The position numbers and the translations under genes were made by a program. The notes beneath the pieces were generated by a model, which saw only the letters and a program-made list of their open reading frames with translations, was not told the origin of the DNA and did no database searches. This document shows, in pieces, positions 30,607 through 53,284 of a DNA stretch of 64,000 bases (its first letter is position 1; each line of letters opens with the position of its first letter). Source of the DNA: Paralichthys olivaceus (Eukaryota; Chordata; Actinopteri; Pleuronectiformes; Paralichthyidae). The stretch is from positions 1,860,001 to 1,924,000 of the forward strand of contig NC_091093.1 in NCBI RefSeq assembly GCF_024713975.1. Direction: 5' to 3'.

Positions 30607-31894
30607 CCTGCCTGAAAACCACAGTGACAGAGGTGTCCAGTGAGCAGCGCCGCTGACAGTCCAGCCCGTCATGATGCCTGCTGTCACTGCAGTCAAGTCT
30701 CCTCCACACAGCAGAGGGCGCTGCTGTGCAACAACACTTCACTACCGTAGCTGCGGCCAGTGGCGCAGCGACCGAAGTCCGCAAACCGGAGGAGCAGATC
30801 AGCCAGGCACGTGCACAGACAATTTGGGGGGCAGGTGCTCGATATATTTAACTTATATATTTATTTTTGTTAACACAATCAACACAGTCTGATCAAATAG
30901 AGTAACTCACATGATCAAACTGAATAAATAAATGAATAACAGGCAACAAATAATCATAAAAATATTCTAACTTAAAACTTACTGCTCTGAATAAATGAAA
31001 TAAAAATAAAGCATCCAATCTATTCTATAAAATACAACTATTTACAAAGGAGGTGAAGGGAGCAGGATCGTTCAGCTACTTCACGGGAGCATCCTCCTTG
31101 GTGCCATCTCTTGGAAGATTGTATGACCTCACTCTGGTTTATTTGTATGTCTTGCTCAATGGCAGGAGGAGAAGGTCAGAGAGTCTTTCTTCCCCACAGA
31201 GACTCCTAATTTGTAAAACAGTAAAACTGTGTTTAAATTCTCTGTCTGTCTGTCTGCTGCAGCTGTCTGTATCTCTCTCCCCCTCTCTCTTCATTAAACA
31301 TGACAAACTTCAGTAAACAGCTGGACAAGGCTTTGAAATCACGGATTTCATGAGTACAAAACGTGTAGGCTATGCGTTATGCATAGATGCTCTTTGTATG
31401 AAAAGGCAAGCCCCCATAAAGTGGAGACAACAGTATGTTTTTAAGCCAGATCACAGCACCTGACCTGCAGCATTATATAAACCAGGCTGCCTTATCACTG
31501 TCTGTTTTTTGTTTGTTCCTCTCTTTTCAGGTCACTCTGTACTGCATGTACTTGTAAATATTCTCTGGCAGAACATTTCAACATTCCTCAGTCCACGTAG
31601 CCACCTTCCTGAAAGCAGGTAAGCCAAACACATTTGACACCATTGTCAAAGCCTTGGCTCATTGATACTACTTTTCCTGTCTGTGTTAAAACCCCTGTTC
31701 AACCATGTGATGCAATACTGTATGGGCTGCCACTGCCAGCTCTGAATTCCACACTCCAACAAACAAGAGGGCAAATATGATTTGAAACCTTCAGAGTCAA
31801 AAATAATGTCCTAATATGGGTAGACTTTTTCTGTCAGGACGGGGGAAAATAATTAAAGCTCTACTAAGCTGAGAATTATGTCAGTTGACATAGG
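30607..31894. other. pcsk6 promoter side and spacer before the array
   Basis: About 200 bases above the pcsk6 start are GC- and CG-rich and probably hold its promoter and 5' UTR. No gene is recognised between here and the array. A pyrimidine/TCTG-rich patch lies near 31240-31280. Confidence 0.4.
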
Positions 31895-32150
31895 TTTGGG
31901 TATTCAATACCAATATCTCACTTTCTTTCAGGTATAATATCAAGCTGTGTTGTCGAGAGTTGATGGCTGAATGGTGGTGGTGCACAGGTGAGGTGGTGGG
32001 AAGCAGGTTCATTGAGAGCCACACATAGAAGGACACACTCTGACAGGGCCAGGGACAATCAGGACCACTTCAGGGTAATTCACTGGGTTGAGATCCAGTG
32101 ACAGTGAAGGTCATAACATGTTTGACATTTCGTATCCAGTTAATAAGTGC

Positions 32151-32156
32151 TTTATT
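32151..32156 (-). terminator. Candidate poly(A) signal, plekhf1 copy A
   Basis: AATAAA on the minus strand (tttatt on plus, inside 'gtgctttattgct'), about 320 bases after the stop codon. The same motif is kept in units B, C and D. Confidence 0.4.
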
Positions 32157-32477
32157 GCTCATAGAAATACTGAAACATATACATTTAAATAAAATCAAGC
32201 ATAATAAACCACAAGGCAGACTGAGGCCTACCTCTGACAGGGAACATCATCAGAGAAAATAATAACAGTAAAGCATGATGTGAAAACAGCAGTATGAACA
32301 AAAGCAATAATAATAATAATAATATAAGAAATCAATTGTTATTACCATTCCTGAGCCAGAATGCATAGCATCTGCTACATCCCAGTATCAGCATTGTTTT
32401 TACATCTCCTGGTATAGAGATCATGTCAAAAAAAGGTCCATAGCCCATTATTAGGCTACTCCTGAGTGCCTAATGTT

Positions 32478-33777
32478 TTACGGCCTCACATGCTCTGGTT
32501 TGAGGAAGACATAGGTTGCCCGAGGGTCCATCTGGGAGTCAGTCCACTTGTTTGGGCCATGGCCTTCCACTTGCTCCTCTGCCTCCTCTTCTTCACTGGG
32601 CTCTCCCACCCCATCTTCACCCAAGCCTGTCTCCCCAATGCTCAGACGACTCATCCCCTGGGCCTCTGCCTCCGTCCTCAGGGGACTCAAGTCACAAATG
32701 CAGCAGACCCTCAACAGCTTAGTTGGGTGAATATGTCTAACTACTGCTCGTTTCTTGGAGCATGAGCCGCAGACCACAAAGCCACATTTTCTGCAGTGGT
32801 GTCTGCGTTGGGTCAAGTCGAACTTGTTGGAACAGCGCATGCAGATGGAAGTGGCTTGGTCGGGGATCCAGGGGACAGCGAAAGTAGAACCAGGTCTGTG
32901 GTTCCCACTCTGCTGCTGTCTGAACTGACAGTCCTCTATATGCTCTATCCAGGTTCGCTTCTCCTCATATGAGGCAGCTGCCACGAAGAATGACTTGCGT
33001 GGTGTACGGATCAACCATTGGTTCTTCATGTTCACATCATCTTCCAAGTCTTCCAGCTGAATTTCCTCTGAAATTATGAAAACAAATTCAGGTTAATATA
33101 AGGTACCAAAGATATGGACCATATTATGGGGTAAACAAGCACACAGGCATGACTTCTTTAAAACAGCTTGTTGTGGAAAGACGACATCCATTTTTTATTT
33201 CAGCCTGTCTCATTAGAAGCACATACATCCACCATGAGGTGACAGTCTGTTCTTGTAAGACTTATAATACTTCCTTCTATTAGGGTTCGAGTTGTGCGAG
33301 AAGACTTTTTCAAGTCATCTCAACAATGTAGCTGTCACCAACTGTAACAAGTGTAAACTGCAGACAGCTTTGTCCTTGTTTAAAATATTCTTTTTGCCTT
33401 TTTCTAGTGCAGCGAGTTTCACTTTGAACTTTGAAAGCATTTCAAGCCCTGACACCATTACTGACTAATCTCACTCTGTGTTTGTCTTGTTCAATATAGA
33501 GTTGTGATGAGCAAATGAGGATGAGGTGCTCACCTAGAAGGATGATCTGCTGGTTTTTGTTCCAGTGGCCCTTCAGGATGATGCTGCCATACACAAGCAC
33601 ATCATTGAAAAGGAAGAAGACTTTAGGCTGGGGCCCCCGACGGCTCTGCTTCATCAACTGGCCCTGTCCAATCAGAACCCGACCTGGCTGGGAGAGCCGT
33701 TTCCCTGATGGTCCAAATGAAATTTCAACAGCATGGATCCGCTCCTGGTTTTCCTGATCAAATGTTACATACACCAT
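32478..33777 (-). CDS. plekhf1: Phafin-family PH-FYVE protein, tandem copy A
   Basis: Coding exons 33534-33777 and 32478-33067 join in phase (phase 1) to 277 aa; human PLEKHF1 is 279. Phafins bind PI3P on endosomes and lysosomes and act in endosome fusion, autophagy and lysosome-linked cell death. The start MVYVTFDQENQ matches the mammalian MVDHLANTEIN position and has a strong Kozak context (AACATGG). PH domain about residues 35-130 (FFLFNDVLVYGSIIL; KNQWLIRTPRKSFFVAAAS). FYVE domain about 147-210: WIPD entry, zinc ligands C157, C160, C173, C176, C181, C184, C203/C204, C206 and the PI3P motif RRHHCRKCG. An acidic tail (SEEEEAEEQ) follows. This copy has DLTQ in the FYVE loop (165-168), unlike B-D. 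A 5' noncoding exon is likely but not placed. Confidence 0.9.
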
Positions 33778-36146
33778 GTTGTTGTCCTTGTCTTGTCTCA
33801 AGTGAGTCTTTCCAACTCCCCGTCTGTGGGTGTGAGATGTTGTCATGTGCTCGTCTCGTCCCTCTAAAGAAACAAGCAGCCTGGCAAAAGCATTTATAGT
33901 TGTTGATGACGCAAACAGGCTTTCCAAAGTAAGTTCAGTGTCAAGAAAAACACTGAGCTATTTTTAAATAAGAGAAGTGATGCAAGTAAATCTGAAGAAG
34001 GAAATGTCTTTACTATCAAAATAATGTTTTTTGGGAATTTAAATTTCTTTGCTGTCTTGCAGCTAAAATTCAATTTTTATGTGCTGAAGTTATGACTGTT
34101 GATTGAGGCTCTCAGTGATTTGAGTGGGACTTCAGGACAATACATCCTGACTGACTGCAGTCATTTCAAAAGGTGCATGTTGCTCCCACTACTTCAGCTC
34201 ATGAATGTTTATTCATTTATTATTCAAGAATTATTGGGGTGACATAGGGTTTTGTAAGGAGCTGGGACATTGTATATTAATGTCAACACAAATAAGAGCA
34301 ACAGTCCTTATGAAAACACACTGGGTTGATTCATGTTAAGATCCACCTGACCTGTGGAACTTTTCTCATTTATGTCCCTAACTAAACCTTCTGCAAGTCA
34401 ACACTATGTTTTACAAACACTGCCAGCTGTTAGAAGCTGTCCTATGGGTAAGCAGGTAGCTACAGATGGAGGCTTCCTGGATGCGAGAAATGATTTTATC
34501 TGGTAATTTAGTAATTTATTTGTTTTCTAATACAAACATCTGTGTTTGTGGACCCTGAAACAGACGCATGTTTTTCCTATTGTTAATGTTGAAACGTCAA
34601 AGTGATGTTCAAATGAAATAGCATCATCTCTTCTCCTTCACGTCTCCACTCTTCTTCCCATCACTCAACAGCACATTTCTCAATAGAGTGCCAGTTCCCT
34701 CGTAGATGATTCAAAATACAGAGGAGCCTTGCATAAGGCCTTCCTGCAACACATCTAAATGTGAATAAGCTAATAATTCATAGCCAAAGCTTAAACTGCT
34801 CAGTCACCATATTGACTTAGACGTGCATTTAAATGAAAATCTTTGATCTTTAATCAGCCATGTGTCCTTGTTAATTAAAGGACTGTGCAGTACGAGCACA
34901 CAACATACATATATTTAGTACTTGTATACAGAGTGATGCAGCAGAAAGTAGTAAGTATTAAACCAGGTTCCCAGATTGTTTCTGGACACAATTGTGTGCA
35001 GTCAAACCAGACGCTTCCTGCTAAACGGTGGCATTAAGAGGTCGGACAACTTCTGTCAACAAATGAATTATGTGAGGCACTACAGACAGCAGGACAGGCA
35101 TCGTCAGCTTAAGTGTTGTTTATTAACAGTGATGCATTTTCTCTTAAAAAGGAAGTTGTGCATGTTTCCCAACAGAGAAAAACAAAGGGTGCAGTCAGGC
35201 AGTTGTCAGGATACAAAAAATGTTGCCTTGTCATCTGCTGCACAAGAAACATTGCAGAACAAAAACATATTCTTTCACTTTGCTATGAGCAAACTTCTAA
35301 AAAATACCACTGAGCACCTATGACTACAACTGGTTCACTGGTATTTTGTATTCAAGGAACAGTTGTATCAGGACTCAAAACAATCACTGAACTGAAGGGC
35401 TGTGTATGGTGAGAAAACATAAGCTGAAACAGGAATGTTTCAATATTGATATCAACACTATATTTTGAATATTTTCCTTGAAATGCTTTGTATAAACATG
35501 GTATAATGGTACTTCTAATTAAATTAAATAATACTAACTCCTCAAATCTATTGGTGTTGGACTGAGCAGTTTGAAAAAGTACTTCAAAGGTTCAGTGTGT
35601 AAGATTTAGGTGAAAGGGATTTTTGGCAGACATTGAATATAAAATAATCCTAGTGATGTTTTCACTGGTGTGTTTTGTCTAAATTGCATGAATTGTTGTT
35701 GAGGTTTAAGGGCAGAGGATGTCACAGTTTGTTAAGCCCTATAAAACAAATTGTGACTGTGAATATGGGCTATACAAAAACAATTTGATTGATTGATTCT
35801 CACAGAAACTACAGACCTAGATCTGATTCTGTGTTGAGATAGCAGCCATCAGGTAATTCCCATACTTAGATAAGAACCTGACAAACAACACAAACCTGTC
35901 TCAATGTTTTTCCATTACCTACATAACTTCCTGTGGTCAGACATAAAGGCTTGCAAAACATTACTTTTCATTATGATTGAAACAGTAGAGGCAGAGCTAT
36001 CCTGACGTGTAGTCTTCAAAAAAATGGATCCCACTTTTCCCATAATGCAAACTGACAATCTTTTTGGAATTTAATCCCATGAAATTTAAACTCAGTACAT
36101 CCCCATTTTAGAATTCCTCTTTAAACAGTGGGATAGTTAATATTGC
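33778..36146. other. Upstream spacer of plekhf1 copy A
   Basis: The reading frame stays open upstream of the ATG for about 50 codons, including an in-frame ATG at 33846, then the sequence becomes noncoding. A truncated MITE left half (35579-35700) is fused directly to a short dispersed repeat (35701-35798). Short plus-strand ORFs near 34976-35323 recur in each unit but show no protein features. Confidence 0.5.
35701..35798 (+). repeat. Short dispersed repeat inside unit A
   Basis: 'gaggtttaagggcagaggat', 'gttaagccctataaaacaaa', 'gaatatgggctatacaaaaa' and the ttgattgattgatt tail. Orthologous copies lie at about 40234-40333, 44763-44862 and, fuller on its left side, 49665-49752. Confidence 0.7.
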
Positions 36147-39100
36147 TTTGGGTATTCAATACCAATATCTCACTTTCTTTCACATATAATATCAAGCTGC
36201 GTTGTACTGAACTGTCCTTAGCTTAACACACAGTGCACTTAAAGGAAAGGGGTCTTCAGTATAACTGCAGAAATCTCTCTCTTAGTTGGAAAGCACTGAA
36301 ATACTGAAAGAACCCATGAAACTGTCACCTTTGTCAGTGCTGTCTGATGAAGTCTGAGACAACAGTGATCTGAAGCAGCAAACAAGACTCAGACAGAGAG
36401 TGAAGCACTGAAGGTGACTGAATGATTGATATGGTTGAGTGAGCCAGGTATACAGAACGAGAGTTGATGGCTGAATGGTGGTGGTGCACAGGTGAGGTGG
36501 TGGGAAGCAGGTTCATTGAGAGCCACACATAGAAGGACACACTCTGACAGGGCCAGGGACAATCAGGACCACTTCAGGGTAAATCACTGGGTTGAGATCC
36601 AGTGACAGTGAAGGTCATAACATGTTTGACATTTCGTATCCAGTTAATAAGTGCTTTATTGCTTATATAAATACTGAAACATATACATTTAAATAAAATT
36701 AAGCATAAATAAACCGCAAGGCAGACTGAGGCCTACCTCTGACAGGGAACATCATCAGAGAAAATAATAACAGTAAAGCATGATGTGAAAACAGCAGTAT
36801 GAACAAAAGCAATAATAATAATAATAATAAGATAAGAAATCCATTGTTATTACCATTCCTGAGCCAGAATGCATAGCATCTGCTACATCCCAGTATCAGC
36901 ATTGTTTTTACATCTCCTGGTATAGAGATCATGTCAAAAAAAGGTCCACAGCCCATTGTTAGGCTACTCCTGAGTGCCTAATGTTTTACGGCCTCACATG
37001 CTCTGGTTTGAGGAAGACATAGATTGCCCGAGGGTCCATCTGGGAGTCAGTCCACTTGCTTGGGCCATGGCCTTCCACTTGCTCCTCTGCCTCCTCTTCT
37101 TCACTGGGCTCTCCCACCCCATCTTCACCCAAGCCTGTCTCCCCAATGCTCAGACGACTCATCCCCTGGGCCTCTGCCTCCGTCCTCACGGGACTCAAGT
37201 CACAAATGCAGCAGACCCTCAACAGCTTAGTTGGGTGAATATGTCTAACTACTGCTCGTTTCTTGGAGCATGAGCCGCAGACCACAAAGCCACATTTTCT
37301 GCAGTGGTGTCTGCGTTGGGTCATGGTGAACTTGTTGGAACAGCGCATGCAGATGGAAGTGGCTTGGTCGGGGATCCAGGGGACAGCGAAAGTAGAACCA
37401 GGTCTGTGGTTCCCACTCTGCTGCTGTCTGAACTGACAGTCCTCTATATGCTCTATCCAGGTTCGCTTCTCCTCATATGAGGCAGCTGCCACGAAGAATG
37501 ACTTGCGTGGTGTACGGATCAACCATTGGTTCTTCATGCTCACACCATCGTCCAAGTCTTCCAGCTGAATGTCCTCTGAAATTATGAAAACAAATTCAGG
37601 TTAATATAAGGTACCAAAGATATGGACCATATTATGGGGTAAACAAGCACACAGGCATGACTTCTTTAAAACAGCTTGTTGTGGAAAGACGACATCCATT
37701 TTTTATTTCAGCCTGTCTCATTAGAAGCACATACATCCACCATGAGGTGACAGTCTGTTCTTGTAAGACTTATAATACTTCCTTCTATTAGGGTTCGAGT
37801 TGTGCGAGAAGACTTTTTCAAGTCATCTCAACAATGTAGCTGTCACTGCCTGTAGCTGTGCACTAACAAAACAACTGTATCAAGTGTAAACTGCAGACAG
37901 CTTTGTCCTTGTTTAAAATATTCTTTTTGCCTTTTTCTAGTGCAGCGAGTTTCACTTTTAACTTTGAAAGCATTTCAAGCCCTGACACCATTACTGACTA
38001 ATCTCACTCTGTGTTTGTCTTGTTCAATATAGAGTTGTGATGAGCAAATGAGGATGAGGTGCTCACCTAGAAGGATGATCTGCTGGTTTTTGTTCCAGTG
38101 GCCCTTCAGGATGATGCTGCCATACACAAGCACATCATTGAAAAGGAAGAAGACTTTAGGCTGGGGCCCCCGACGGCTCTGCTTCATCAACTGGCCCTGT
38201 CCAATCAGAACCCGACCTGGCTGGGAGAGCCGTTTCCCTGATGGTCCAAATGAAATTTCAACAGCATGGATCCGCTCCTGGTTTTCCTGATCAAATGTTA
38301 CATACACCATGTTGTTGTCCTTGTCTTGTCTCAAGTGAGTCTTTCCAACTCCCCGTCTGTGGGTGTGAGATGTTGTCATGTGCTCGTCTCGTCCCTCTAA
38401 TGAAACAAGCAGCCTGGCAAAAGCATTTATAGTTGTTGATGACGCAAACAGGCTTTCCAAAGTAAGTTCAGTGTCAAGAAAAACACTGAGCTATTTTGAA
38501 ATAAGAGAAGTGATGCAAGTAAATCTGAAGAAGGAAATTTCTTTACTATCAAAATAATATTTTTTGGGAATTTAAATTTCTTTGCTGTCTTGCAGCTAAA
38601 ATTCAATTTTTATGTGCTGAAGTTAAGACTGTTGATTGAGGCTCTCAGTGATTTGAGTGGGACTTCAGGACAATACATCCTGACTGACTGCAGTCATTTC
38701 AAAAGGTGCATGTTGCTCCCACTACTTCAGCTCATGAATGTTTATTCATTTATTATTCAAGAATTATTGGGGTTACATAGGGTTTTGTAAGGAGCTGGGA
38801 CATTGTATATTAATGTCAACACAAATAAGAGCAACAGTCCTTATGAAAACACACTGGGTTGATTCATGTTAAGATCCACCTGACTTGTGGAACTTTTCTC
38901 ATTTATGTCCCTAACTAAACCTCCTGCAAGTCAACACTATGTTTTACAAACACTGCCAGCTGTTAGAAGCTGTCCTATGGGTAAGCAGGTAGCTACAGAT
39001 GGAGGCTTCCTGGATGCGAGAAATGATTTTATCTGGTCATTTAATAATTTATTTGTTTTCTAATACAAACATCTGTGTTTGTGGACCCTGAAACAGAAGC

Positions 39101-40680
39101 ATGTTTTTCCTATTGTTTCATGTTGAAACGTCAAAGTGATGTTCAAATGAAATAGCATCATCTCTTCTCCTTCACGTCTACACTCTTCTTCCGAACACTC
39201 AACAGCACATTTCTCAATAGAGTGCCAGTTCCCTCGTACATGATTCAAAATACAGAGGAGCCTTGCATAAGGCCTTCCTGCAACACATCTAAATGGGAAT
39301 AAGCTAATAATTCATAGCCAAAGCTTAAACTGCTCAGTCACCATATTGACTTAGACGTGCATTTAAATGAAAATCTTTGATCTTTAATCAGCCATGTGTC
39401 CTTGTTAATTAAAGGACTGTGCAGTACGAGCACACAACATACATATATTTAGTACTTGTATACAGAGTGATGCAGCAGAAAGGAGTAAGTATTAAACCAG
39501 GTTCCCAGATTTTTTCTGGACACAATTGTGTGCAGTCAAACCAGACGCTTCCTGCTAAACGGTGGCATTAAGAGGTCGGACAACTTCTGTCAACAAATGA
39601 ATTATGTGAGGCACACCAGACAGCAGGAGAGGCATCGTCAGCTTAAGTGTTGTTTATTAACAGTGATGCATTTTCTCTTAAAAAGGAAGTTGTGCATGTT
39701 TCCCAACAGAGAAAAACACAGGGTGCAGTCAGGCAGTTGTCAGGATACAAAAAATGTTGCCTTGTCATCTGCTGCACAAGACACATTGCAGAACAAAAAC
39801 ATATTCTTTCACTTTGCTATGAGCAAACTTCTAAAAAATACCACTGAGCACCTATGACTACAACTGGTTCACTGGTATTTTGTATTCAAGGAACAGTTGT
39901 ATCAGGACTCAAAACAATCACTGAACTGAAGGGCTGTGTATGGTGAGAAAACATAAGCTGAAACAGGAATGTTTCAATACTGATATCAACACTATATTTT
40001 GAATATTTTCCTTGAAATGCTTTGTATAAACATGGTATAATGGTACTTCTAATTAAATTAAATAATACAAACTCCTCAAATCTATTGGTGTTGGACTGAG
40101 CAGTTTGAAAAAGTACTTCAAAGGTTCAGTGTGTAAGATTTAGGTGGAAGGGATTTTTGGCAGACATTGAATATAAAATAATCCTAGTGATGTTTTCACT
40201 GGTGTGTTTTGTCTAAATTGCATGAATTGTTGTTGAGGTTTAAGGGCAGAGGATGTCACAGTTTGTTAAGCCCTATAAAACAAATTGTGACTGTGAATAT
40301 GGGCTATACAAAAACAATTTGATTGATTGATTCTCACAGAAACTACAGACCTAGATCTGATTTCGTGTTGAGATAGCAGCCATCAGATAATTCCCATACT
40401 TAGATAAGAACCTGACAAACAACACAAACCTGTCTCAATGTTTTTCCATTACCTACATAACTTCCTGTGGTCAGACATAAAGGCTTGCAAAACATTACTT
40501 TTCATTATGATTGAAACAGTAGAGGCAGAGTTATCCTGACGTGTAGTCTTCAAAAAAATGGATCCCACTTTTCCCATAATGCAAACTGACAATCTTTTTG
40601 GAAGTTAATCCCATGAAATTTAAACTCAGTACATCCCCATTTTAGAATTCCTCTTTAAAGAGTGGGATAGTTAATATTGC
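36147..40680 (-). repeat. Tandem plekhf1 unit B (4534 bp)
   Basis: Second unit, only a few percent different from C and D by eye across exons, intron and spacer. It carries the fused truncated MITE/short-repeat junction near 40234. Confidence 0.92.
36986..38310 (-). CDS. plekhf1: Phafin-family PH-FYVE protein, tandem copy B
   Basis: Coding exons 38067-38310 and 36986-37575, 277 aa, same architecture as copy A. Distinguishing residues: Asp at 83 (EDIQ, shared with C and D; A has EEIQ), DDGVSMK at 90-96, TMTQ in the FYVE loop (165-168), LSPVRTEAEA after the FYVE domain, and RAIYVF near the C-terminus. The PH region FRQQQ is shared with A, and N75 (HWNKNQQ) with A. All zinc ligands and RRHHCRKCG are intact and there is no stop or frameshift, so it looks functional. 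Confidence 0.9.
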
Positions 40681-43600
40681 TTTGGGTATTCAATTCCAAT
40701 ATCTCACTTTCTTTCACATATAATATCAAGCTGCGTTGTACTGAACTGTCCTTAGCTTAACACACAGTGCACTTAAAGGAAAGGGGTCTTCAGTATAACT
40801 GCAGAAATCTCTCTTTTAGTTGGAAAGCACTGAAATACTGAAAGAACCCATGAAACTGTCACCTTTGTCAGTGCTGTCTGATGAAGTCTGAGACAACAGT
40901 GATCTGAAGCAGCAAACAAGACTCAGACAGAGAGTGAAGCACTGAAGGTGACTGAATGATTGATATGGTTGAGTGAGCCAGGTATACAGAACGAGAGTTG
41001 ATGGCTGAATGGTGGTGGTGCACAGGAGAGGTGGTGGGAAGCAGGTTCATTGAGAGCCACACATAGAAGGACACACTCTGACAGGGCCAGGGACAATCAG
41101 GACCACTTCAGGGTAATTCACTGGGTTGAGATCCAGTGACAGTGAAGGTCATAACATGTTTGACATTTCGTATCCAGTTAATAAGTGCTTTATTGCTTAT
41201 ATAAATACTGAAACATATACATTTAAATAAAATCAAGCATAAATAAACCGCAAGGCAGACTGAGGCCTACCTCTGACAGGGAACATCATCAGAGAAAATA
41301 ATAACAGTAAAGCATGATGTGAAAACAGCAGTATGAACAAAAGCAATAATAATAATAATATAATAAATCCATTGTTATTACCATTCCTGAGCCAAAATGC
41401 ATAGCATCTGCTACATCGCTGTATCAGCATTGTTTTTACATCTCCTGGTATAGAGATCATGTCAAAAAAAGGTCCACAGCCCATTATTAGGCTACTCCTG
41501 AGTGCCTAATGTTTTAGGGCCTCACATGCTCTGGTTTGAGGAAGACATAGGTTGCCTGAGGGTCCATCTGGGAGTCAGTCCACTTGCTTGGGCCATGGCC
41601 TTCCACTTGCTCCTCTGCCTCCTCTTCTTCACTGGGCTCTCCCACCCCATCTTCACCCAAGCCTGTCTCCCCAATGCTCAGACGACTCATCCCCTGGGCC
41701 TCTGCCTCCATCCTCAGGGGACTCAAGTCACAAATGCAGCAGACCCTCAACAGCTTAGTTGGGTGAATATGTCTAACTACTGCTCGTTTCTTGGAGCATG
41801 AGCCGCAGACCACAAAGCCACATTTTCTGCAGTGGTGTCTGCGTTGGGTCACGGTGAACTTGTTGGAACAGCGCATGCAGATGGAAGTGGCTTGGTCGGG
41901 GATCCAGGAGACAGCGAAAGTAGAACCAGGTCTGTGGTTCCCACTCTGCAGCTGTCTGAACCGACAGTTCTCTATATGCTCTATCCAGGTTCGCTTCTCC
42001 TCATATGAGGCAGCTGCCACGAAGAATGACTTGCGTGGTGTACGGATCAACCATTGGTTCTTCATGTTCACACCATCTTCCAAGTCTTCCAGCTGAATGT
42101 CCTCTGAAATTATGAAAACAAATTCAGGTTAATATAAGGTACCAAAGATATGGACCATATTATGGGGTAAACAAGCACACAGGCATGACTTCTTTAAAAC
42201 AGCTTGTTGTGGAAAGACGACATCCATTTTTTATTTCAGCATGTCTCATTAGAAGCGCATACATCCACCATGAGGTGACAGTCTGTTCTTGTAAGACTTA
42301 TAATACTTCCTTCTATTAGGGTTCGAGTTGTGCGAGAAGACTTTTTCAAGTCATCTCAACAATGTAGCTGTCACTGCCTGTAGCTGTGCACTAACAAAAC
42401 AACTGTAACAAGTGTAAACTGCAGACAGCTTTGTCCTTGTTTAAAATATTCTTTTTGCCTTTTTCTAGTGCAGCGAGTTTCACTTTGAACTTTGAAAGCA
42501 TTTCAAGCCCTGACACCATTACTGACTAATCTCACTCTGTGTTTGTCTTGTTCAATATAGAGTTGTGATGAGCAAATGAGGATGAGGTGCTCACCTAGAA
42601 GGATGATCTGCTGTTTTTTGTTCCAGTGGCCCTTCAGGATGATGCTGCCATACACAAGCACATCATTGAAAAGGAAGAAGACTTTAGGCTGGGGCCCCCG
42701 ACGGCTCTGCTTCATCAACTGGCCCTGTCCAATCAGAACCCGACCTGGCTGGGAGAGCCGTTTCCCTGATGGTCCAAATGAAATTTCAACAGCATGGATC
42801 CGCTCCTGGTTTTCCTGATCAAATGTTACATACACCATGTTGTTGTCCTTGTCTTGTCTCAAGTGAGTCTTTCCAACTCCCCGTCTGTGGGTGTGAGATG
42901 TTGTCATGTGCTCGTCTCGTCCCTCTAAAGAAACAAGCAGCCTGGCAAAAGCATTTATAGTTGTTGATGACGCAAACAGGCTTTCCAAAGTAAGTTCAGT
43001 GTCAAGAAAAACACTGAGCTATTTTGAAATAAGAGAAGTGATGCAAGTAAATCTGAAGAAGGAAATGTCTTTACTATCAAAATAATATGTTTTGGGAATT
43101 TAAATTTCTTTGCTGTCTTGCAGCTAAAATTCAATTTTTATGTGCTGAAGTTAAGACTGTTGATTGAGGCTCTCAGTGATTTGAGTGGGACTTCAGGACA
43201 ATACATCCTGACTGACTGCAGTCGTTTCAAAAGGTGCATGTTGCTCCCACTACTTCAGCTCATGAATGTTTATTCATTTATTATTCAAGAATTATTGGGG
43301 TTACATAGGGTTTTGTAAGGAGCTGGGACATTGTATATTAATGTCAACACAAATAAGAGCAACAGTCCTTATGAAAACACACTGGGTTGATTCATGTTAA
43401 GATCCACCTGACTTGTGGAACTTTTCTCATTTATGTCCCTAACTTAACCTCCTGCAAGTCAACACTATGTTTTACAAACACTGCCAGCTGTTAGAAGCTG
43501 TCCTATGGGTAAGCAGGTAGCTACAGATGGAGGCTTCCTGGATGCGAGAAATGATTTTATCTGGTAATTTAGTCATTTATTTGTTTTCTAATACAAACAT

Positions 43601-45208
43601 CTGTGTTTGTGGACCCTGAAACAGAAGCATGTTTTTCCTATTGTTTCATGTTGAAACGTCAAAGTGATGTTCAAATGAAATAGCATCATCTCTTCTCCTT
43701 CACGTCTACACTCTTCTTCCCATCACTCAACAGCACATTTCTCAATAGAGTGCCAGTTCCCTCGTACATGATTCAAAATACAGAGGAGCCTTGCATAAGG
43801 CCTTCCTGCAACACATCTAAATGTGAATAAGCTAATAATTCATAGCCAAAGCTTAAACTGCTCAGTCACCATATTGACTTAGACGTGCATTTAAATGAAA
43901 ATCTTTGATCTTTAATCAGCCATGTGTCCTTGTTAATTAAAGGACTGTGCAGTACGAGCACACAACATACATATATTTAGTACTTGTATACAGAGTGATG
44001 CAGCAGAAAGGAGTAAGTATTAAACCAGGTTCCCAGATTTTTTCTGGACACAATTGTGTGCAGTCAAACCAGACGCTTCCTGCTAAACGGTGGCATTAAG
44101 AGGTCGGACAACTTCTGTCAACAAATGAATTATGTGAGGCACACCAGACAGCAGGAGAGGCATCGTCAGCTTAAGTGTTGTTTATTAACAGTGATGCATT
44201 TTCTCTTAAAAAGGAAGTTGTGCATGTTTCCCAACAGAGAAAAACACAGGGTGCAGTCAGGCAGTTGTCAGGATACAAAAAATGTTGCCTTGTCATCTGC
44301 TGCACAAGACACATTGCAGAACAAAAACATATTCTTTCACTTTGCTATGAGCAAACTTCTAAAAAATACCACTGAGCACCTATGACTACAACTGGTTCAC
44401 TGGTATTTTGTATTCAAGGAACAGTTGTATCAGGACTCAAAACAATCACTGAACTGAAGGGCTGTGTATGGTGAGAAAACATAAGCTGAAACAGGAATGT
44501 TTCAGTACTGATATCAAAATGATATTTTGAATATTTTCCTTGAAATGTTTTGTATAAACATGGTATAATGGTACTTCTAATTAAATAAAATAATACAAAC
44601 TCCTCAAATCTATTGGTGTTGGACTGAGCAGTTTGAAAAAGTACTTCAAGGGTTCAGTGTGTAAGATTTAGGTGAAAGGGATTTTTGGCAGACATTGAAT
44701 ATAAAATAATCCTAGTGATGTTTTCACTGGTGTGTTTTGTCTAAATTGCATGAATTGTTGTTGAGGTTTAAGGGCAGAGGATGTCACAGTTTGTTAAGCC
44801 CTATAAAACAAATTGTGACTGTGAATATGGGCTATACAAAAACAATTTGATTGATTGATTCTCACAGAAACTACAGACCTAGATCTGATTTCGTGTTGAG
44901 ATAGCAGCCATCAGATAATTCCCATACTTAGATAAGAACCTGACAAACAACACAAACCTGTCTCAATGTTTTTCCATTACCTACATAACTTCCTGTGGTC
45001 AGACATAAAGGTTTGCAAAACATTACTTTTCATTATGATTGAAACAGTAGAGGCAGAGCTATCCTGACGTGTAGTCTTCAAAAAAATGGATCCCACTTTT
45101 CCCATAATGCAAACTGACAATCTTTTTTGAAGTTAATCCCATGAAATTTAAACTCAGTACATCCCCATTTTAGAATTCCTCTTTAAACAGTGGGATAGTT
45201 AATATTGC
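40681..45208 (-). repeat. Tandem plekhf1 unit C (4528 bp)
   Basis: Third unit, same boundaries and the same truncated MITE/short-repeat fusion (near 44763). A short AAT microsatellite at 41347-41360 differs in length between units (longer in B and D). Confidence 0.92.
41514..42838 (-). CDS. plekhf1: Phafin-family PH-FYVE protein, tandem copy C
   Basis: Coding exons 42595-42838 and 41514-42103, 277 aa. Distinguishing residues: K75 (HWNKKQQ, shared with D), IENCRFRQLQ in the PH C-terminal helix (others have IEDC), FAVSWIPD at the FYVE entry where A, B and D have FAVPWIPD, TVTQ in the FYVE loop, LRMEAEA and DPQATYVF. The frame is intact and the zinc ligands are complete. The P147S change lies next to the conserved WxxD motif that helps hold PI3P, so a mild change in lipid binding is conceivable. 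Confidence 0.9.
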
Positions 45209-46047
45209 TTTGGGTATTCAATACCAATATCTCACTTTCTTTCACATATAATATCAAGCTGCGTTGTACTGAACTGTCCTTAGTTTAACACACAGTGCAC
45301 TTAAAGGAAAGGGGTCTTCAGTATAACTGCAGAAATCTCTCTTTTAGTTGGAAAGCACTGAAATACTGAAAGAACCCATGAAACTGTCACCTTTGTCAGT
45401 GCTGTCTGATGAAGTCTGAGACAACAGTGATCTGAAGCAGCAAACAAGACTCAGACAGAGAGTGAAGCACTGAAGGTGACTGTATGATTGATATGGTTGA
45501 GTGAGCCAGGTATACAGAACGAGAGTTGATGGCTGAATGGTGGTGGTGCACAGGTGAGGTGGTGGGAAGCAGGTTCATTGAGAGCCACACATAGAAGGAC
45601 ACACTCTGACAGGGCCAGGGACAATCAGGACCACTTCAGGGTAAATCACTGGGTTGAGATCCAGTGACAGTGAAGGTCATAACATGTTTGACATTTCGTA
45701 TCCAGTTAATAAGTGCTTTATTGCTCATATAAATACTGAAACATATACATTTAAATAAAATCAAGCATAAATAAACCGCAAGGCAGACTGAGGCCTACCT
45801 CTGACAGGGAACATCATCAGAGAAAATAATAACAGTAAAGCATGATGTGAAAACAGCAGTATGAACAAAAGCAATAATAATAATAATAATAATATAAGAA
45901 ATCCATTGTTATTACCATTCCTGAGCCAGAATGCATAGCATCTGCTACATCCCAGTATCAGCATTGTTTTTACATCTCCTGGTATAGAGATCATGTCAAA
46001 AAAAGGTCCACAGCCCATTATTAGGCTACTCCTGAGTGCCTAATGTT

Positions 46048-47372
46048 TTACGGCCTCACATGCTCTGGTTTGAGGAAGACATAGATTGCCCGAGGGTCCA
46101 TCTGGGAGTCAGTCCACTTGCTTGGGCCATGGCCTTCCACTTGCTCCTCTGCCTCCTCTTCTTCACTGGGCTCTCCCACCCCATCTTCACCCAAGCCTGT
46201 CTCCCCAATGCTCAGACGACTGATCCCCTGGGCCTCTGCCTCCGTCCTCAGGGGACTCAAGTCACAAATGCAGCAGACCCTCAACAGCTTAGTTGGGTGA
46301 ATATGTCTAACTACTGCTCGTTTCTTGGAGCATGAGCCGCAGACCACAAAGCCACATTTTCTGCAGTGGTGTCTGCGTTGGGTCACGGTGAACTTGTTGG
46401 AACAGCGCATGCAGATGGAAGTGGCTTGGTCGGGGATCCAGGGGACAGCGAAAGTAGAACCAGGTCTGTGGTTCCCACTCTGCAGCTGTCTGAACCGACA
46501 GTCCTCTATATGCTCTATCCAGGTTCGCTTCTCCTCATATGAGGCAGCTGCCACGAAGAATGACTTGCGTGGTGTACGGATCAACCATTGGTTCTTCATG
46601 TTCACATCATCTTCCAAGTCTTCCAGCTGAATGTCCTCTGAAATTATGAAAACAAATTCAGGTTAATATAAGGTACCAAAGATATGGACCATATTATGGG
46701 GTAAACAAGCACACAGGCATGACTTCTTTAAAACAGCTTTTTGTGGAAAGACGACATCCATTTTTTATTTCAGCATGTCTCATTAGAAGCACATACATCC
46801 ACCATGAGGTGACAGTCTGTTCTTGTAAGACTTATAATACTTCCTTCTATTAGGGTTCGAGTTGTGCGAGAAGACTTTTTCAAGTCAACTCAACAATGTA
46901 GCTGTCACTGCCTGTAGCTGTGCACTAACAAAACAACTGTAACAAGTGTAAACTGCAGACAGCTTTGTCCTTGTTTAAAATATTCTTTTTGCCTTTTTGT
47001 AGTGCAGCGAGTTTCACTTTGAACTTTGAAAGCATTTCAAGCCCTGACACCATTACTGACTAATCTCACTCTGTGTTTGTCTTGTTCAATATAGAGTTGT
47101 GATGAGCAAATGAGGATGAGGTGCTCACCTAGAAGGATGATCTGCTGTTTTTTGTTCCAGTGGCCCTTCAGGATGATGCTGCCATACACAAGCACATCAT
47201 TGAAAAGGAAGAAGACTTTAGGCTGGGGCCCCCGACGGCTCTGCTTCATCAACTGGCCCTGTCCAATCAGAACCCGACCTGGCTGGGAGAGCCGTTTCCC
47301 TGATGGTCCAAATGAAATTTCAACAGCATGGATCCGCTCCTGGTTTTCCTGATCAAATGTTACATACACCAT
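46048..47372 (-). CDS. plekhf1: Phafin-family PH-FYVE protein, tandem copy D
   Basis: Coding exons 47129-47372 and 46048-46637, 277 aa. Distinguishing residues: K75 (with C), EDDVNMK (with A), IEDCRFRQLQ, TVTQ in the FYVE loop (with C), EAQGISRLS where the others have EAQGMSRLS, and RAIYVF (with B). The frame is open and the zinc ligands are intact. As the unit beside pop4 with the fullest upstream DNA, it is my best guess for the copy closest to the ancestral locus. Its 5' flank differs from those of A-C, so its expression could differ as well. Confidence 0.9.
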
Positions 47373-49182
47373 GTTGTTGTCCTTGTCTTGTCTCAAGTGA
47401 GTCTTTCCAACTCCCCGTCTGTGGGTGTGAGATGTTGTCATGTGCTCATCTCGTCCCTCTAAAGAAACAAGCAGCCTGGCAAAAGCATTTATAGTTGTTG
47501 ATGACGCAAACAGGCTTTCCAAAGTAAGTTCAGTGTCAAGAAAAACACTGAGCTATTTTTAAATAAGAGAAGTGATGCAAGTAAATCTGAAGAAGGAAAT
47601 GTCTTTACTATCAAAATAATATTTTTTGGGAATTTAAATTTCTTTGCTGTCTTGCAGCTAAAATTCAATTTTTATGTGCTGAAGTTAAGACTGTTGATTG
47701 AGGCTCTCAGTGATTTGAGTGGGACTTCAGGACAATACATCCTGACTGACTGCAGTCGTTTCAAAAGGTGCATGTTGCTCCCACTACTTCAGCTCATGAA
47801 TGTTTATTCATTTATTATTCAAGAATTATTGGGGTGACATAGGGTTTTGTAAGGAGCTGGGACATTGTATATTAATGTCAACACAAATAAGAGCAACAGT
47901 CCTTATGAAAACACACTGGGTTGATTCATGTTAAGATCCACCTGACCTGTGGAACTTTTCTCATTTATGTCTCTAACTAAACCTCCTGCAAGTCAACACT
48001 ATGTTTTACAAACACTGCCAGCTGTTAGAAGCTGTCCTATGGGTAAGCAGGTAGCTACAGATGGAGGCTTCCTGGATGCGAGAAATGATTTTGTCTGGTC
48101 ATTTAGTAATTTATTTGTTTTCTAATACAAACATCTGTGTTTGTGGACCCTGAAACAGAAGCATGTTTTTCCTATTGTTTCATGTTGAAACGTCAAAGTG
48201 ATGTTCAAATGAAATAGCATCATCTCTTCTCCTTCACATCTACACTCTTGTTCCCATCACTCAACAGCACATTTCTCAATAGAGTGCCAGTTCCCTCGTA
48301 GATGATTCAAAATACAGAGGAGCCTTGCATAAGGCCTTCCTGCAACACATCTAAATGTGAATAAGCTAATAATTCATAGCCAAAGCTTAAACTGCTCAGT
48401 CACCATATTGACTTAGACATGCATTTAAATGAAAATCTTTGATCTTTAATCAGCCATCTGTCCTTGTTAATTAAAGGACTGTGCAGTACGAGCACACAAC
48501 ATACATATATTTAGTACTTGTATACAGAGTGATGCAGCAGAAAGGAGTAAGTATTAAACCAGGTTCCCAGATTTTTTCTGGACACAATTGTGTGCAGTCC
48601 AACCAGACGCTTCCTGCTAAACGGTGGCATTAAGAGGTCGGACAACTTCTGTCAACAAATGAATTATGTGAGGCACACCAGACAGCAGGACAGGCATCGT
48701 CAGCTTAAGTGTTGTTTATTAACAGTGATGCATTTTCTCTTAAAAAGGAAGTTGTGCATGTTTCCCAACAGAGAAAAACAAAGGGTGCAGTCAGGCAGTT
48801 GTCAGGATACAAAAAATGTTGCCTTGTCATCTGCTGCACAAGAAACATTGCAGAACAAAAACATATTCTTTCACTTTGCTATGAGCAAACTTCTAAAAAA
48901 TACCACTGAGCACCTATGACTAACACTGGTTCACTGGTATTTTGTATTCAAGGAACAGTTGTATCAGGACTCAAAACAATCACTGAACTGAAGGGCTGTG
49001 TATGGTGAGAAAACATAAGCTGAAACAGGAATGTTTCAATACTGATATCAAAATGATATTTTGAATATTTTCCTTGAAATGTTTTGTATAAACATGGTAT
49101 AATGGTACTTCTAATTAAATAAAATAATACTAACTCCTCAAATCTATTGGTGTTGGACTGAGCAGTTTGAAAAAGTACTTCA

Positions 49183-49549
49183 AAGTTTCAGTGTGTAAGA
49201 TTTAGGTGAAAGGGATTTTTGGCAGACATTGAATATAAAATAATCCTAGTGATGTTTTCACTGGTGTGTTTTGTCTAAATTGCATGAATTGTTGTTTTCT
49301 TTACCATAGAACGGACCTTTATATATAAATATATTTACATGGAGGGGGGTCGTCTCTGTGGAGGCCACCATGTTATTTACTGTCATCCAAACTAGACAAA
49401 CTAAAACCTTTTGAGTTTTCATGACAACTGAAGTTCACCACAGGTTCTATTTCATGTTGGGAAGAGGAGGGTGAGGTGAGGAGCATTCAGCTGCAACATG
49501 ACACTTCACCTCTAGATGTCACTAAATTCTACACACCGAACCTTTAAAT
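49183..49549. mobile_element. Full-length MITE with terminal inverted repeats
   Basis: The left end (aaagtttcagtgtgtaagat then tta) and right end (taaattctacacaccgaacc then ttt) are inverted copies over about 25 bases with a few mismatches. The ~365-base body has no coding potential. Only the left ~120 bases survive in units A, B and C (for example 35579-35700). Superfamily is not assigned. Confidence 0.75.
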
Positions 49550-50197
49550 CCAGAAACATTTGATCAAACATTTGGCGAGTAACTGAAAATAGGCACAGGA
49601 ACACAGTCAGTGTGATACGCTTTCAAAAGTAGGAATGGAAAAAAGAAGACAAGCATTCCTTGTTGAGGTTTAAGGGCAGAGGATGTCAGCTTGTTAAGCC
49701 CTATAAGACAAATTGTGATTGTGAATATGGGCTATACAAAAACAAGATTGATTTTCACAGAAACTACAGACCTAGATCTGATTTCATGTTGAGATAGCAG
49801 CCATCAGATAATTCCCATACTTAGATAAGAACCTGACAAACAACACAAACCTGTCTCAGTGTTTTTCCATTACCTACATAACTTCCTGTGGTCAGACATA
49901 AAGGCTTGAAAAACATTACTTTCCAAATGATTAAGATTGAAACAGTAGAGGCAGAGCTATCCTCACATGTAGTCTTCAAAAAAAATGGATCCCACTTTTC
50001 CCATAATTCAAATTGACAATCTTTGTGGAAGTTAATCCCATGAAATTTAAACTCAGTACATCCCCATTTCAGAATTCCTCTTTAAACAGGGGGATAGTTA
50101 TGATTGCTGCAGTTCCTTCTGATGGTCATTAAAGCAGTCCAGTGCAGTCCAAGTGAGAGTTGTCTCTGCAGCACAGTGTGTCCTGCTCTCAGTGCCA

Positions 50198-53075
50198 TCA
50201 CAAGTCCAGAGTTCCTCTCACTTTAAACTTCTTGGCGGAGCGCTCACTGGCTCGCTGCTCAAACTTACTCCCATAGATGTGTGAGACGAAGCCGTTGATC
50301 TCCACAGCAAAAACACTGTTCCTCTTAGGGATCACTGGCACAAGTGGAGGGAGAGAAACAAAAGAACAGATGTGTTAGCCTGCTGAGATAAAAGTGTTTC
50401 TATAATGTACGAATGTGCCATCAGACAGATTTGATCATCCTTATGTGTTATGACTAAAGTCTTACATGCTGGTTCACACACATGTTTAAAGGAATAAGCT
50501 GAACCAAACTGGTTTCACCTTTTACCGTGATGTGCAGTTTAACAGCAAGTGAAAAAATAAACATCTTGTTATAGAAAGTATAATGTTGTATAGTATAAGG
50601 CGTGGTGAGGGGATTTTAAATAAAGTTGCATAAAGAAAAATGACAACATGGTCAGAATCATTCAAATGAGCAGCAGAATGTGAAATGAACTGGTTGTTGT
50701 TGGAAGCCAGCTAAAGGTGGGGTTCACTGAGTGAGATGGAGCTGTCAAACCTTTCAGTCTGTTCTCCTTAGTGATCATTTTGAAGACATGTTTGAACTCT
50801 TGGACTAAAATCCCTGTTGTCCCCACATACGATGGACATTTAGACCGGACCACTGTGAAAGTGAAAAGAAAAGATGGGGTTATAGCTGCATCCATGCTCA
50901 CAGAGGTACCTCCAGATAAGGGTCTATAAACAGTTGGGAGCAGCGACACTCAACTCTCTCGCAAATGTTACAGTGCAGTGATCATCAGGGGTGTATGTGT
51001 ACACCAACTGCACTTGTCATTGGCTGTGAGCGTGTCAGTGGGTCACAGTAAAAACTGGCTGTTCTCTTCTTCACAGACATCAACATCCTCTCTACAGCTG
51101 ATTGGTCAACATGTGTTTGATTGGTTGTTCTGGAAAAGTGGTTCTGCTGCTGCAGGTAAAACAGCTGCACACTATTGTAAAGAACAAAAATCCCTGGATA
51201 CGTTGGTTGAATATTGATTGTTTCATTTAGACCTGAGCCATTTCTAGCAACATGTTTTTTCCAGTACAGTAAATTCGCTCCATCATTAAACTTCATAACT
51301 CAGTGACTCATTTCTTGTGATTTGGCACTATACAAATAAAAGTCATTGAATCAAATGCACTGTGATGTGAACTTTAGAGAAAAGTAAAACTCCACCTGTG
51401 ATGATGGCACCATGGAAGTCAGCCTTCAGAAGCTTCTGCTGCACCAACTGAGGACTGCTGTGAAATTACAGAGGTTTCAGAGACTCAAGAAAAACCTTCA
51501 GAGGAGATGTTTCAAAGTAATGTTAGGGTACAGAACTGATTTACCTTGTTGGTTTCAATCCACTGCACAGGTCAATAATGTAGTGTCTCCAGAGCTCATG
51601 CAGAGGCAGGAAGAGCTCGTATCTGATGATGGTGATATAAATGGTGAAGATGGGGGAAGAGGAGGAGGGAGAGAACTGGGTAGATGAGCACAGTGCACAT
51701 CATCCAACACTTTTCCACATATGAGACACAACAGGTTTCAAATGCTTCAGGTACTTCACCAACCTCTGGTTCTGAGGCTTGATCTGGAAGATCTTCATCG
51801 CCCTTTTCTGACGAGCATTCAATCCTTTGGCTTTTTTACTACTCCTCTTTGACTGGTCCTTCTTGGGCCTGGAGTAGCCCAAGACCACAGCCTTGTGGCT
51901 CAACATGTCTTTCAAATCATGCCGTGCATCATGCTGAATGCTTTTATTTAGGAACGACTGAGTGAAGGCCTCCGCTTTGGAGCTGGTCTGAGACTGGAAA
52001 TGAGACAATGACAGCAAGTACATTTACAGAGCTTACATGAACTGACATCTCACCTGGAAAACATACAGAACAATGTCCAGGCTGCAACGTTTGTTTTAAA
52101 CTTTTGATAGAAAATTCTATCAATAGATCCTGCTTGATAGATTAATTCTCATAATTGACAATTATCATAAATTTTAGCTGTGAATCTGATGTCACTCTTT
52201 TGTCTGAGGTTCATCTGCACAAGAAGTCTGGATTCCACAGGATGTCACACTGTGTCGAACGAGAGGAATCTGTGCACCTCAACAGCAAGTAGCTTCACCA
52301 GGTCTTTAGGAATCCGGGTTCGAACCAGCGCTTCTGTTAAGACACAAATAAAACGTGAAATACACAAAACCTGATCAACTCACTGACACTGAAAAAGTGG
52401 CAGCTGGCCATAAAGACTTTTTAATTAAAAAAAAAGTTCTTCAGCTCTAGCTTTGTCGACTTTTATGTCAATTAACTATTAGTGCATCGGCTTCAATTAC
52501 CACATTCACATAGTAATTCTCGTTAGCATTCATTTCTCCAGTCCTACAAAATTAGACTGATCAATTCCATTCACATTACTTTTACACTTAATTTTTACAT
52601 TAGGATGATTTCTATTTTTATTTGACATGTACATTGAACATTTCTATATAAAATGTACTTATATTCATACAAGAAGTTATTTCATTTTTTGTGGTATTAC
52701 AAACCCATTCTGGGAAAATGTATTAAATCGTTCTGTATGAATTTCTCTGTAACTGTTTGAGACACACAGTAGTGACGTGATCACCAGTGGCCACAGGAGA
52801 GAAGCGGAGCTCGTGACGCACTGATGTGTTTTTCTTCACACCAGAGAAACCACTCTTCTCTGGCAGAAACAGTTTGACCCGCACATCGCCCTCTTCGTAG
52901 TTTCATCTTCATTTGAGTTCAATCATTTCTAGTGGTTCTAAAACGTCTCGTTCGAAAGTTGGGCGTGAACGTGGTTTACAGTCCACCTCATCGAACGTCA
53001 CTGCACCGAATCCTCTCCTTATCAGCGTGTCCTTTAAATATTAACTTCACGTCCGCGTTTAAACTTACCCTCCAT
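50198..53075 (-). CDS. pop4: Ribonuclease P/MRP protein subunit p29, complete, 7 exons
   Basis: Exons: 53069-53075, 52278-52333, 51764-51993, 51545-51622, 51396-51457, 50751-50852, 50198-50334, joining to 223 aa (human POP4 220). The protein is a core subunit of nuclear RNase P and RNase MRP, acting in tRNA 5' processing and rRNA maturation. Recognisable blocks: SSKAEAFTQSFL, KKAKGLNARQKRAMKIFQI, YELFLPLHELWRHYIIDLCS, then the Sm-like Rpp29 barrel with KADFHGAIIT, RSKCPSYVGTTGILVQEFKH and VFKMITKENRLK, ending YGSKFEQRASERSAKKFK and GTLDL. Exon 1 carries only seven coding bases (ATGGAGG). The first bases of exon 5 form a tandem acceptor (cagcag), so one Ser is optional. It lies beside the plekhf1 array in the same orientation, matching the human neighbourhood as I recall it. 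Confidence 0.95.
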
Positions 53076-53284
53076 TTGCACGTCTATGTCGAGTTCCCAC
53101 GGAGAGTTTAGGCAAATGCAGGTAAATAACTGTCAAGCTCTGCATGCACGTTCTCACTTCCGCTTCCTCTTCTTCTACCGTTGTGACGAGATGATGTTGC
53201 CCCCTGCAGTCAACAACACGCACTTCAAGAAAAAAGAAGAACGCTGTCCCAGAGACTTGTTTTATATGTGGGTCAAATGATGAA

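What the first reader, a model, noticed from the sequence alone, without database searches (positions are those of the whole stretch)
31895..50108. Four-copy tandem array of an intact plekhf1-type gene
Four head-to-tail units of about 4.5 kb each carry a complete 277-codon PH-FYVE gene with all zinc ligands and splice sites preserved. Mammals have one PLEKHF1 beside POP4. Exon, intron and spacer similarity of the units is high along their whole length by eye, so the amplification is recent, and all copies staying open suggests either recency or selection for dosage or diversification.
Basis: partly seen in the sequence, partly recalled or inferred. Interest (0 to 1): 0.75.

Follow-up and report, generated by a model that had tools for sequence, protein, structure and literature searches.

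The report
Four tandem, protein-diverging plekhf1 genes
An animal chromosome (probably a fish's) carries four intact back-to-back copies of a gene for a probable endosome/lysosome-binding protein; the DNA of the copies looks kept alike by exchange, while nearly every coding difference changes the protein, so the copies may be specialising or may simply be drifting.

Summary
Four head-to-tail ~4.5-kb units (31896-50108; core divergence 1.2-1.5%) each carry an intact 277-codon PH-FYVE gene: two coding exons, GT-AG intron, all eight zinc cysteines. Genome searches showed no fifth copy; a diverged plekhf1-like gene with the same intron lies on C5, a plekhf2-like gene with one coding exon on C13. 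The array ends ~90 bp past the pop4 stop codon.

'Recent' needs correcting. The array's outer edges are three to four times as diverged as the core, and sites support incompatible groupings of the units. This fits an older two-copy duplication, later expanded and homogenised by exchange.

The notable result: 19 of 20 minimal coding substitutions are replacements (omega ~8; p 0.003-0.05 against 1, below 1e-6 against the 0.24 seen versus the C5 gene). They sit in the PH domain, FYVE membrane loop (unit 1 has Asp where relatives have Ser/Thr) and tail. Yet replacement rates do not clearly exceed the noncoding rate (whole CDS p 0.40, exon 2 p 0.058), so positive selection is suggested, not proven; relaxed constraint stays open. 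Reads, relatives and expression were not available. Known kind of system; moderate interest.

The parts
31896..36147 (-). Unit 1 (lacks ~252 bp of junction sequence near its left edge and 25 bp of the intron)
36148..40681 (-). Unit 2
40682..45209 (-). Unit 3
45210..50108 (-). Unit 4 (keeps a full-length MITE-like element; its tail 49660-50108 is only ~92% alike to units 1-3)
33534..33777 (-). Unit 1 plekhf1 coding exon 1 (244 bp)
32478..33067 (-). Unit 1 plekhf1 coding exon 2 with stop (590 bp); FYVE loop Asp165-Leu166
38067..38310 (-). Unit 2 coding exon 1
36986..37575 (-). Unit 2 coding exon 2; FYVE loop Thr165-Met166
42595..42838 (-). Unit 3 coding exon 1
41514..42103 (-). Unit 3 coding exon 2; FYVE loop Thr165-Val166
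47129..47372 (-). Unit 4 coding exon 1
46048..46637 (-). Unit 4 coding exon 2; FYVE loop Thr165-Val166
36206..36457 (.). ~252-bp junction segment present on the left side of units 2-4, absent from unit 1 (lost there or gained by the others, not decided); no match listed elsewhere in the genome
49177..49547 (.). Full-length MITE-like element in unit 4 (limits approximate); units 1-3 share a 368-bp deletion (5-bp TTGTT repeat at its ends) removing its right part and ~110 bp beyond
49660..50108 (.). Right edge of array, 4.5-5.0% substitutions from units 1-3, against 1.2-1.5% in the core
50198..50335 (-). Last coding exon of pop4 by eye (from VIPKRN to the stop codon at 50198-50200), right neighbour of the array; the exon's own 5' limit was not fixed
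   Evidence: upstream pop4 exon at 50752-50859 by Pfam

Best explanation
This is a real four-gene tandem array of plekhf1 at its pop4-linked locus, probably in a teleost (organism inferred, not named by any search). Step 1 (inferred): a ~4.5-kb segment running from just past the pop4 stop codon to the intergenic DNA before a proprotein-convertase gene was duplicated once, with about 1 bp of overlap at the joint. Step 2 (inferred from edge divergence and shared indels): unequal crossing over between the two copies raised the number to four, and exchange kept the core alike, so the left edge of unit 1 and the right edge of unit 4 preserve the age of the first duplication. Step 3 (shown as a pattern, cause inferred): the four proteins differ almost only by replacements, in the second half of the PH domain, the FYVE membrane-insertion loop and the C-terminal part, while zinc cysteines, frames and splice sites stay intact. 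My preferred cause is that the copies remain functional and their endosome/lysosome-binding surfaces are being diversified; release from constraint among redundant copies is nearly as likely.
For: Array and intact genes. Edge effect: unit 4 tail 20-22/443 per pair against 44-56/3739-3772 per pair in the core, Fisher p 1.4e-6 (U1-U4); unit 1 left edge 3/58, p 0.04. Right ends group units 1-3 by a shared 368-bp deletion inside a MITE-like element that is full length in unit 4; full-length matches occur at 4 of the 5 genomic loci examined (L014, L015, L017, and a second copy in L018; the fetched place in L018 and L016 match only the left ~165 bp), so the deletion is taken as derived. Units 2-4 share ~252 bp and 25 bp that unit 1 lacks. 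Both are what growth from two copies predicts. Incompatible two-against-two site patterns: 10, 10 and 3 of 114 variable sites. Replacements 19, silent 1. Omega 8.0, p 0.005 against 1; over all variants 0.0035-0.046 (other topologies, exon 2 only, kappa fixed at 1, codons 165-166 dropped). p 2e-8 to 6e-7 against 0.24, the value against the C5 paralogue (0.237).
Against: The silent count rests on one substitution. Replacement rate in the whole CDS is not above the noncoding rate (19/651 sites against 69/2905, p 0.40), in exon 2 only marginally (18/461, p 0.058); silent rate is not significantly below it (1/180, p 0.19; exon 2 p 0.37). Binomial p is 0.013-0.041 for 20 changes, 0.052 for exon 2 alone, 0.029-0.076 with clustered changes collapsed. 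Omega 2 is not rejected (p 0.093). Replacements do not clearly avoid positions conserved between the two paralogues (3 of 14 against 93 of 240, p 0.14). Two-against-two patterns are not clustered into tracts (permutation p 0.26). No expression, read or population data.
Confidence: 0.48

Rival explanations
1. The array is real (same growth and exchange) but the extra copies are redundant: constraint on the protein is relaxed and replacements accumulate by drift; the shortage of silent changes is chance, and the frames are open only because the copies are young.
For: Replacement rate is not significantly above the noncoding rate (whole CDS p 0.40, exon 2 p 0.058) and silent rate not significantly below it (p 0.19); binomial p 0.029-0.076 after collapsing clusters; 3 of 14 alignable variable codons hit paralogue-conserved sites; with 20 substitutions and a ~4.5% stop fraction, four open frames are not surprising.
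Against: Omega above 1 at p 0.0035-0.046 in the codon-model variants tried; exon 1 is nearly invariant (1/244 against 69/2905, p 0.04); FYVE cysteines, splice sites and an AATAAA past the stop kept in 4 of 4.
Confidence: 0.36
2. Selection for dosage: several copies give more of one protein.
For: Four intact genes with conserved splice sites and polyadenylation signal; homogenised core.
Against: Selection for more of the same protein predicts silent changes over replacements; the reverse is seen (19 to 1).
Confidence: 0.1
3. Assembly artefact: one unit, or two haplotypes, written several times.
For: Cannot be excluded without reads; core noncoding differences are transversion-rich (23:46, against 104:76 for MITE comparisons, p 0.0007), which is odd for ordinary divergence.
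Against: Each unit has private substitutions, units differ by 368-bp, ~252-bp, 25-bp and smaller indels, 23 variable sites are shared by exactly two units, the window has no N, and edges and core differ in divergence.
Confidence: 0.06

Closest known systems
PLEKHF1 / Phafin1 / LAPF (single gene in mammals; recalled) and PLEKHF2 / Phafin2
   Same: PH followed by FYVE domain, RRHHCR motif and FYVE cysteines, acidic stretch followed by a C-terminal tail; pop4 neighbour.
   Different: Four tandem copies; a coding intron in the PH domain (also in the C5 gene, absent from this genome's plekhf2-like gene); acidic stretch is Glu-rich; copy-specific residues in the FYVE loop and tail.
Tandem gene arrays under concerted evolution (unequal crossing over and conversion, sharper divergence at array edges; recalled as a kind)
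   Same: Homogenised core, older edges, incompatible site groupings, shared indels sorting by array position.
   Different: Almost all coding differences are replacements; conversion tracts are not resolved.
Teleost gene clusters such as ApoD (PMC6325677; title and start of abstract seen in a search listing only)
   Same: Clustered expansion of one gene family in teleosts.
   Different: Different gene family; not compared further.

Membership tests
PLEKHF1 (Phafin1) | N-terminal PH domain followed by one FYVE domain in a ~280-aa protein | tested here: met
   Pfam PH 38-127 (40.7 bits) and FYVE 148-206 (62.6 bits), both over cut-off, unit 4 protein only; 277 aa in 4 of 4
PLEKHF1 (Phafin1) | C-terminal tail after the acidic stretch, lacking in Phafin2 | tested here: met
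   All four copies have an acidic stretch followed by ~30 residues; this genome's plekhf2-like protein ends in an acidic stretch; tail described in passages of PMC9324892 and PMC11211877. Sequence similarity to the mammalian tail was not tested
PLEKHF1 (Phafin1) | Synteny with pop4 | tested here: met
   Only RNase_P-MRP_p29 match listed in the genome lies at window 50752-50859; pop4 stop at 50198-50200, ~90 bp from the array. That mammals share the adjacency is recalled
PLEKHF1 (Phafin1) | Phylogenetic grouping with PLEKHF1 of other vertebrates | not tested
   No other vertebrate sequences were used; unit 1 identity to the C5 gene 53% and to the C13 gene 40%
PLEKHF1 (Phafin1) | PtdIns(3)P binding and lysosomal targeting | not testable with these tools
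   Sequence only; RRHHCR motif present in 4 of 4
Concerted-evolution tandem array | Edges more diverged than core | tested here: met
   Right edge p 1.4e-6, left edge p 0.04 on 58 bp
Concerted-evolution tandem array | Evidence of exchange between units | tested here: inconclusive
   Incompatible site patterns 10/10/3, but no significant clustering into tracts (p 0.26)
Positively selected gene family | dN/dS above 1 among copies | tested here: inconclusive
   Omega ~5-8.5, p 0.0035-0.046 by codon model; binomial p 0.013-0.076; replacement rate against noncoding rate p 0.40 (whole CDS) and 0.058 (exon 2); rests on one silent change

The most novel reading that the evidence does not exclude
The array is a small diversifying set of phosphoinositide readers. 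Despite exchange that erases differences elsewhere, selection keeps installing amino-acid differences in the second exon: unit 1 has an acidic residue in the FYVE membrane-insertion loop, units 2-4 have Met or Val next to it, and PH and tail residues differ too. The four proteins would then sit on different endosomal or lysosomal membranes or respond differently to infection; zebrafish PLEKHF2 has been reported as antibacterial and PLEKHF1 as involved in bacterial removal in macrophages (passages of PMC10178739 and PMC9324892).
Probability: 0.3. Interest if true: 0.62.

Novelty: new member of a known kind. Interest (0 to 1): 0.4.

Why it matters
PLEKHF1 is a PH-FYVE adaptor linked to lysosomal apoptosis, autophagy and macrophage activation (review PMC11211877, passages read). 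A four-copy set with mostly replacement differences gives natural variants of the FYVE membrane loop, PH surface and lysosome-targeting tail in one genome. It also makes a clean small test of how selection and homogenisation compete in a tandem array, because both edges seem to keep a record of the founding duplication.

Tried and rejected
Structure prediction of the unit 4 protein from a single sequence failed (mean pLDDT 32.8) and was not used; residue placement rests on Pfam limits and PDB sequence alignments.

A 7-bp microhomology at the founding joint, suspected from the alignment, did not hold: the flanks share about 1 bp there by eye.

Testing for continued constraint by asking whether replacements avoid paralogue-conserved sites gave no significant result. 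Testing for conversion tracts by clustering of site patterns gave none.

The 122-aa plus-strand frame at 34955-35323, open in all four units, has no Pfam match (unit 1 copy); taken as chance.

Pfam gave no match for the 51703-52023 minus frame, which I had taken for a pop4 exon by recall; pop4 rests. Pfam also gave none for 57067-57492.

The protein search of the genome did not complete, so the paralogue count rests on the FYVE family search (38 matches, 68 of 68 candidates scored) and the spacer DNA search (43 matches, 40 of 3867 candidates scored). Rfam (gathering threshold) and tRNA scans of the window found nothing.

Paper searches: plekhf1 + tandem duplication + fish 0 papers; plekhf1 + teleost 2; phafin1 45, 20 listed; a loose 3-of-6-term search 12,020, 30 listed, none of the listed holding plekhf1; LAPF/PLEKHF1/macrophage/lysosom 52, 20 listed; plekhf1 + fish 15; plekhf1 + tandem 20, 15 listed; zebrafish + plekhf1 + intron 5. 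No listed title or abstract start describes a plekhf1 array. Only open-licence PMC papers are covered.

On re-checking I added the rate comparisons that do not favour selection (p 0.40, 0.19, 0.37) and lowered the best explanation from 0.6 to 0.48, the relaxed-constraint rival from 0.38 to 0.36 and the dosage rival from 0.12 to 0.10 so that the odds sum to 1.
Full report
What is there. The window is G000:C1:1860001-1924000 of a 588-Mb, 25-contig genome. Self-comparison confirms four head-to-tail units between 31896 and 50108, spaced 4504-4534 bp. A spacer query of 2370 bp gives 43 matches: five rows are the four array units, and the other 38 are hits of about 65-131 bp to a dispersed MITE-like element (40 of 3867 candidates scored, so a lower bound). 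Each unit carries, on the minus strand, a gene with two coding exons of 244 and 590 bp, an intron of 466 bp (unit 1) or 491 bp (units 2-4) with GTGAGC donor and CAG acceptor, and a 277-codon frame. An AATAAA lies 320-326 bp past each stop, 4 of 4. No indel falls in the coding exons (0 of 10 gap entries).

Which gene. The unit 4 protein matches Pfam PH (38-127) and FYVE (148-206) above cut-off. The FYVE search of the genome gives 38 matches; among the best eight are the four array copies, a gene with one coding exon on C13 and a gene on C5. The C13 protein lacks the tail and I take it for plekhf2. The C5 gene has the same intron position and phase, 277 codons, 53% identity to unit 1. The only RNase_P-MRP_p29 (pop4) match listed in the genome lies at window 50752-50859; the pop4 stop codon, by eye, is at 50198-50200. 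That mammals have PLEKHF1 next to POP4 is recalled. On the left the nearest gene that I recognised is a minus-strand proprotein convertase (subtilase, P-domain and furin-like exons).

Age and growth of the array. Pairwise divergence in the core (31954-35695) is 1.17-1.50%. The last 450 bp of unit 4 differ from units 1-3 by 4.5-5.0%, whereas units 1-3 differ there from each other by 0.9-1.3% (Fisher for U1-U4 tail against core 1.4e-6). On the other side, the 58 bp at the left edge of unit 1 differ from the junction at 3 positions (p 0.04, a small count). Right ends group units 1-3 by a shared 368-bp deletion with TTGTT at its ends; unit 4 retains the whole MITE-like element. Full-length matches occur at 4 of the 5 genomic loci examined (L018 by a second copy; L016 and the fetched place in L018 match only the left part), so the deletion is taken as derived. 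On the left, units 2-4 carry ~252 bp that unit 1 lacks, direction undecided. That sorting, and similar divergence at both edges, is what follows if two copies arose first and unequal crossing over produced the rest. Site patterns support all three groupings of the four units (10, 10 and 3 of 114 variable sites), as expected under exchange, though they do not cluster into tracts (p 0.26). So the high similarity is at least partly homogenisation; 'recent amplification' describes the core, not the founding event.

Protein differences. Of 18 variable codons 17 change the amino acid; minimal counts are 19 replacements and 1 silent change. With mutation probabilities taken from the noncoding core, P(one or no silent change of 20) is 0.039, and 0.052 for exon 2 alone; with a transition bias as in the genome's MITE comparisons 0.015; with clustered changes collapsed to 17, 0.029-0.076. 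A codon model on the four sequences gives omega 8.0; p against 1 is 0.005, 0.0066 for exon 2, 0.018 with kappa fixed at 1, and 0.016 (0.046 with kappa 1) with codons 165-166 left out; omega 1.5 is rejected at 0.034, omega 2 is not (0.093). Other topologies give p 0.0035. Against the long-term value 0.24 (array against C5 gene) p is 2e-8, and 6e-7 without codons 165-166. The robust statement is that the constraint seen over the long term is not visible within the array; that selection actively favours change is suggested. Results against it: replacement rate against noncoding rate p 0.40 for the whole CDS and 0.058 for exon 2; silent rate against noncoding p 0.19 (exon 2 0.37). There is also no significant avoidance of paralogue-conserved positions (3 of 14 against 93 of 240, p 0.14). 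Exon 1 has 1 change in 244 bp against 69 in 2905 noncoding (p 0.04).

Where they fall. Eight codons lie in or just after the PH domain (75, 83, 90, 92, 94, 127, 129, 133), one at the edge of FYVE (147), two in the FYVE loop before the RRHHCR motif (165, 166), three after FYVE (211, 213, 220) and three in the tail (254, 264, 266). In the four FYVE alignments displayed (ZFYVE16, FGD5, LM5-1, WDFY3; 16 PDB sequences matched, five alignments shown, one without FYVE) and in both paralogues the residue at 165 is Ser or Thr; unit 1 alone has Asp. That this loop inserts into membranes is recalled from FYVE structural work. Review passages that I read state that the Phafin1 tail targets lysosomes and its PH domain binds phosphorylated p53 (PMC11211877), that zebrafish Phafin2 is antibacterial (PMC10178739), and that Phafin1 is linked to bacterial removal in macrophages (PMC9324892). 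A functional divergence of the copies in immunity is therefore a hypothesis, not a result.

Oddity. Noncoding core differences are transversion-rich (23:46) compared with six alignments of unit 4's MITE to genomic copies (104:76, p 0.0007; these share one query, so they are not independent) and with the tail (15:11, p 0.037). Exon 2 is not (10:7, one three-state site). By my count from the list, the 18 noncoding sites shared by two units are 5:13, so random base errors do not explain it. Error-prone repair synthesis during exchange is one idea; it is untested.

Verdict. A real-looking plekhf1 array of a known kind (tandem duplication with homogenisation), with an unusual replacement excess that deserves population data. 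Whether it is specific to one lineage is untested; species, reads, relatives and expression were not available.

Noticed in passing
window 31954-35695 (noncoding core of the units): Differences among units are transversion-rich (23 ts : 46 tv) against 104:76 for MITE comparisons in the same genome, with several tight clusters; no explanation found.
   Followed up: partly
window 35581-35700, 40115-40235, 44643-44762, 49177-49547 (approximate): Dispersed MITE-like element inside every unit; truncated in units 1-3, full length in unit 4; 38 further matches listed in the genome (a lower bound).
   Followed up: yes
window 11162-30738, minus strand: Exons of a proprotein convertase with subtilase, P-domain and furin-like Cys-rich parts (PCSK5/6 type by recall); its likely first exon (30382-30738, by eye) faces the array's left edge.
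   Followed up: partly
window 57064-60992, minus strand: Exons of an ion-transport protein (Pfam Ion_trans at 59784-60038; the rest by eye), two-pore-channel-like by recall, beyond pop4.
   Followed up: partly
L006 (G000:C5:19332711-19335899): Second, diverged plekhf1-like gene with the same PH-domain intron; the plekhf2-like gene on C13 has no coding intron.
   Followed up: yes
window 10678-11067 (+), 13192-13521 (-), 53273-53869 (-): Frames that look by eye like fragments of Tc1-type transposases and of a LINE reverse transcriptase.
   Followed up: no
window 61515-61635: Tandem repeat of a 22-bp unit, 5.5 copies.
   Followed up: no
window 3758-3960 and 29468-29667: Inverted pair of ~200-bp repeats at 78% identity, one on either side of most of the convertase exons.
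   Followed up: no
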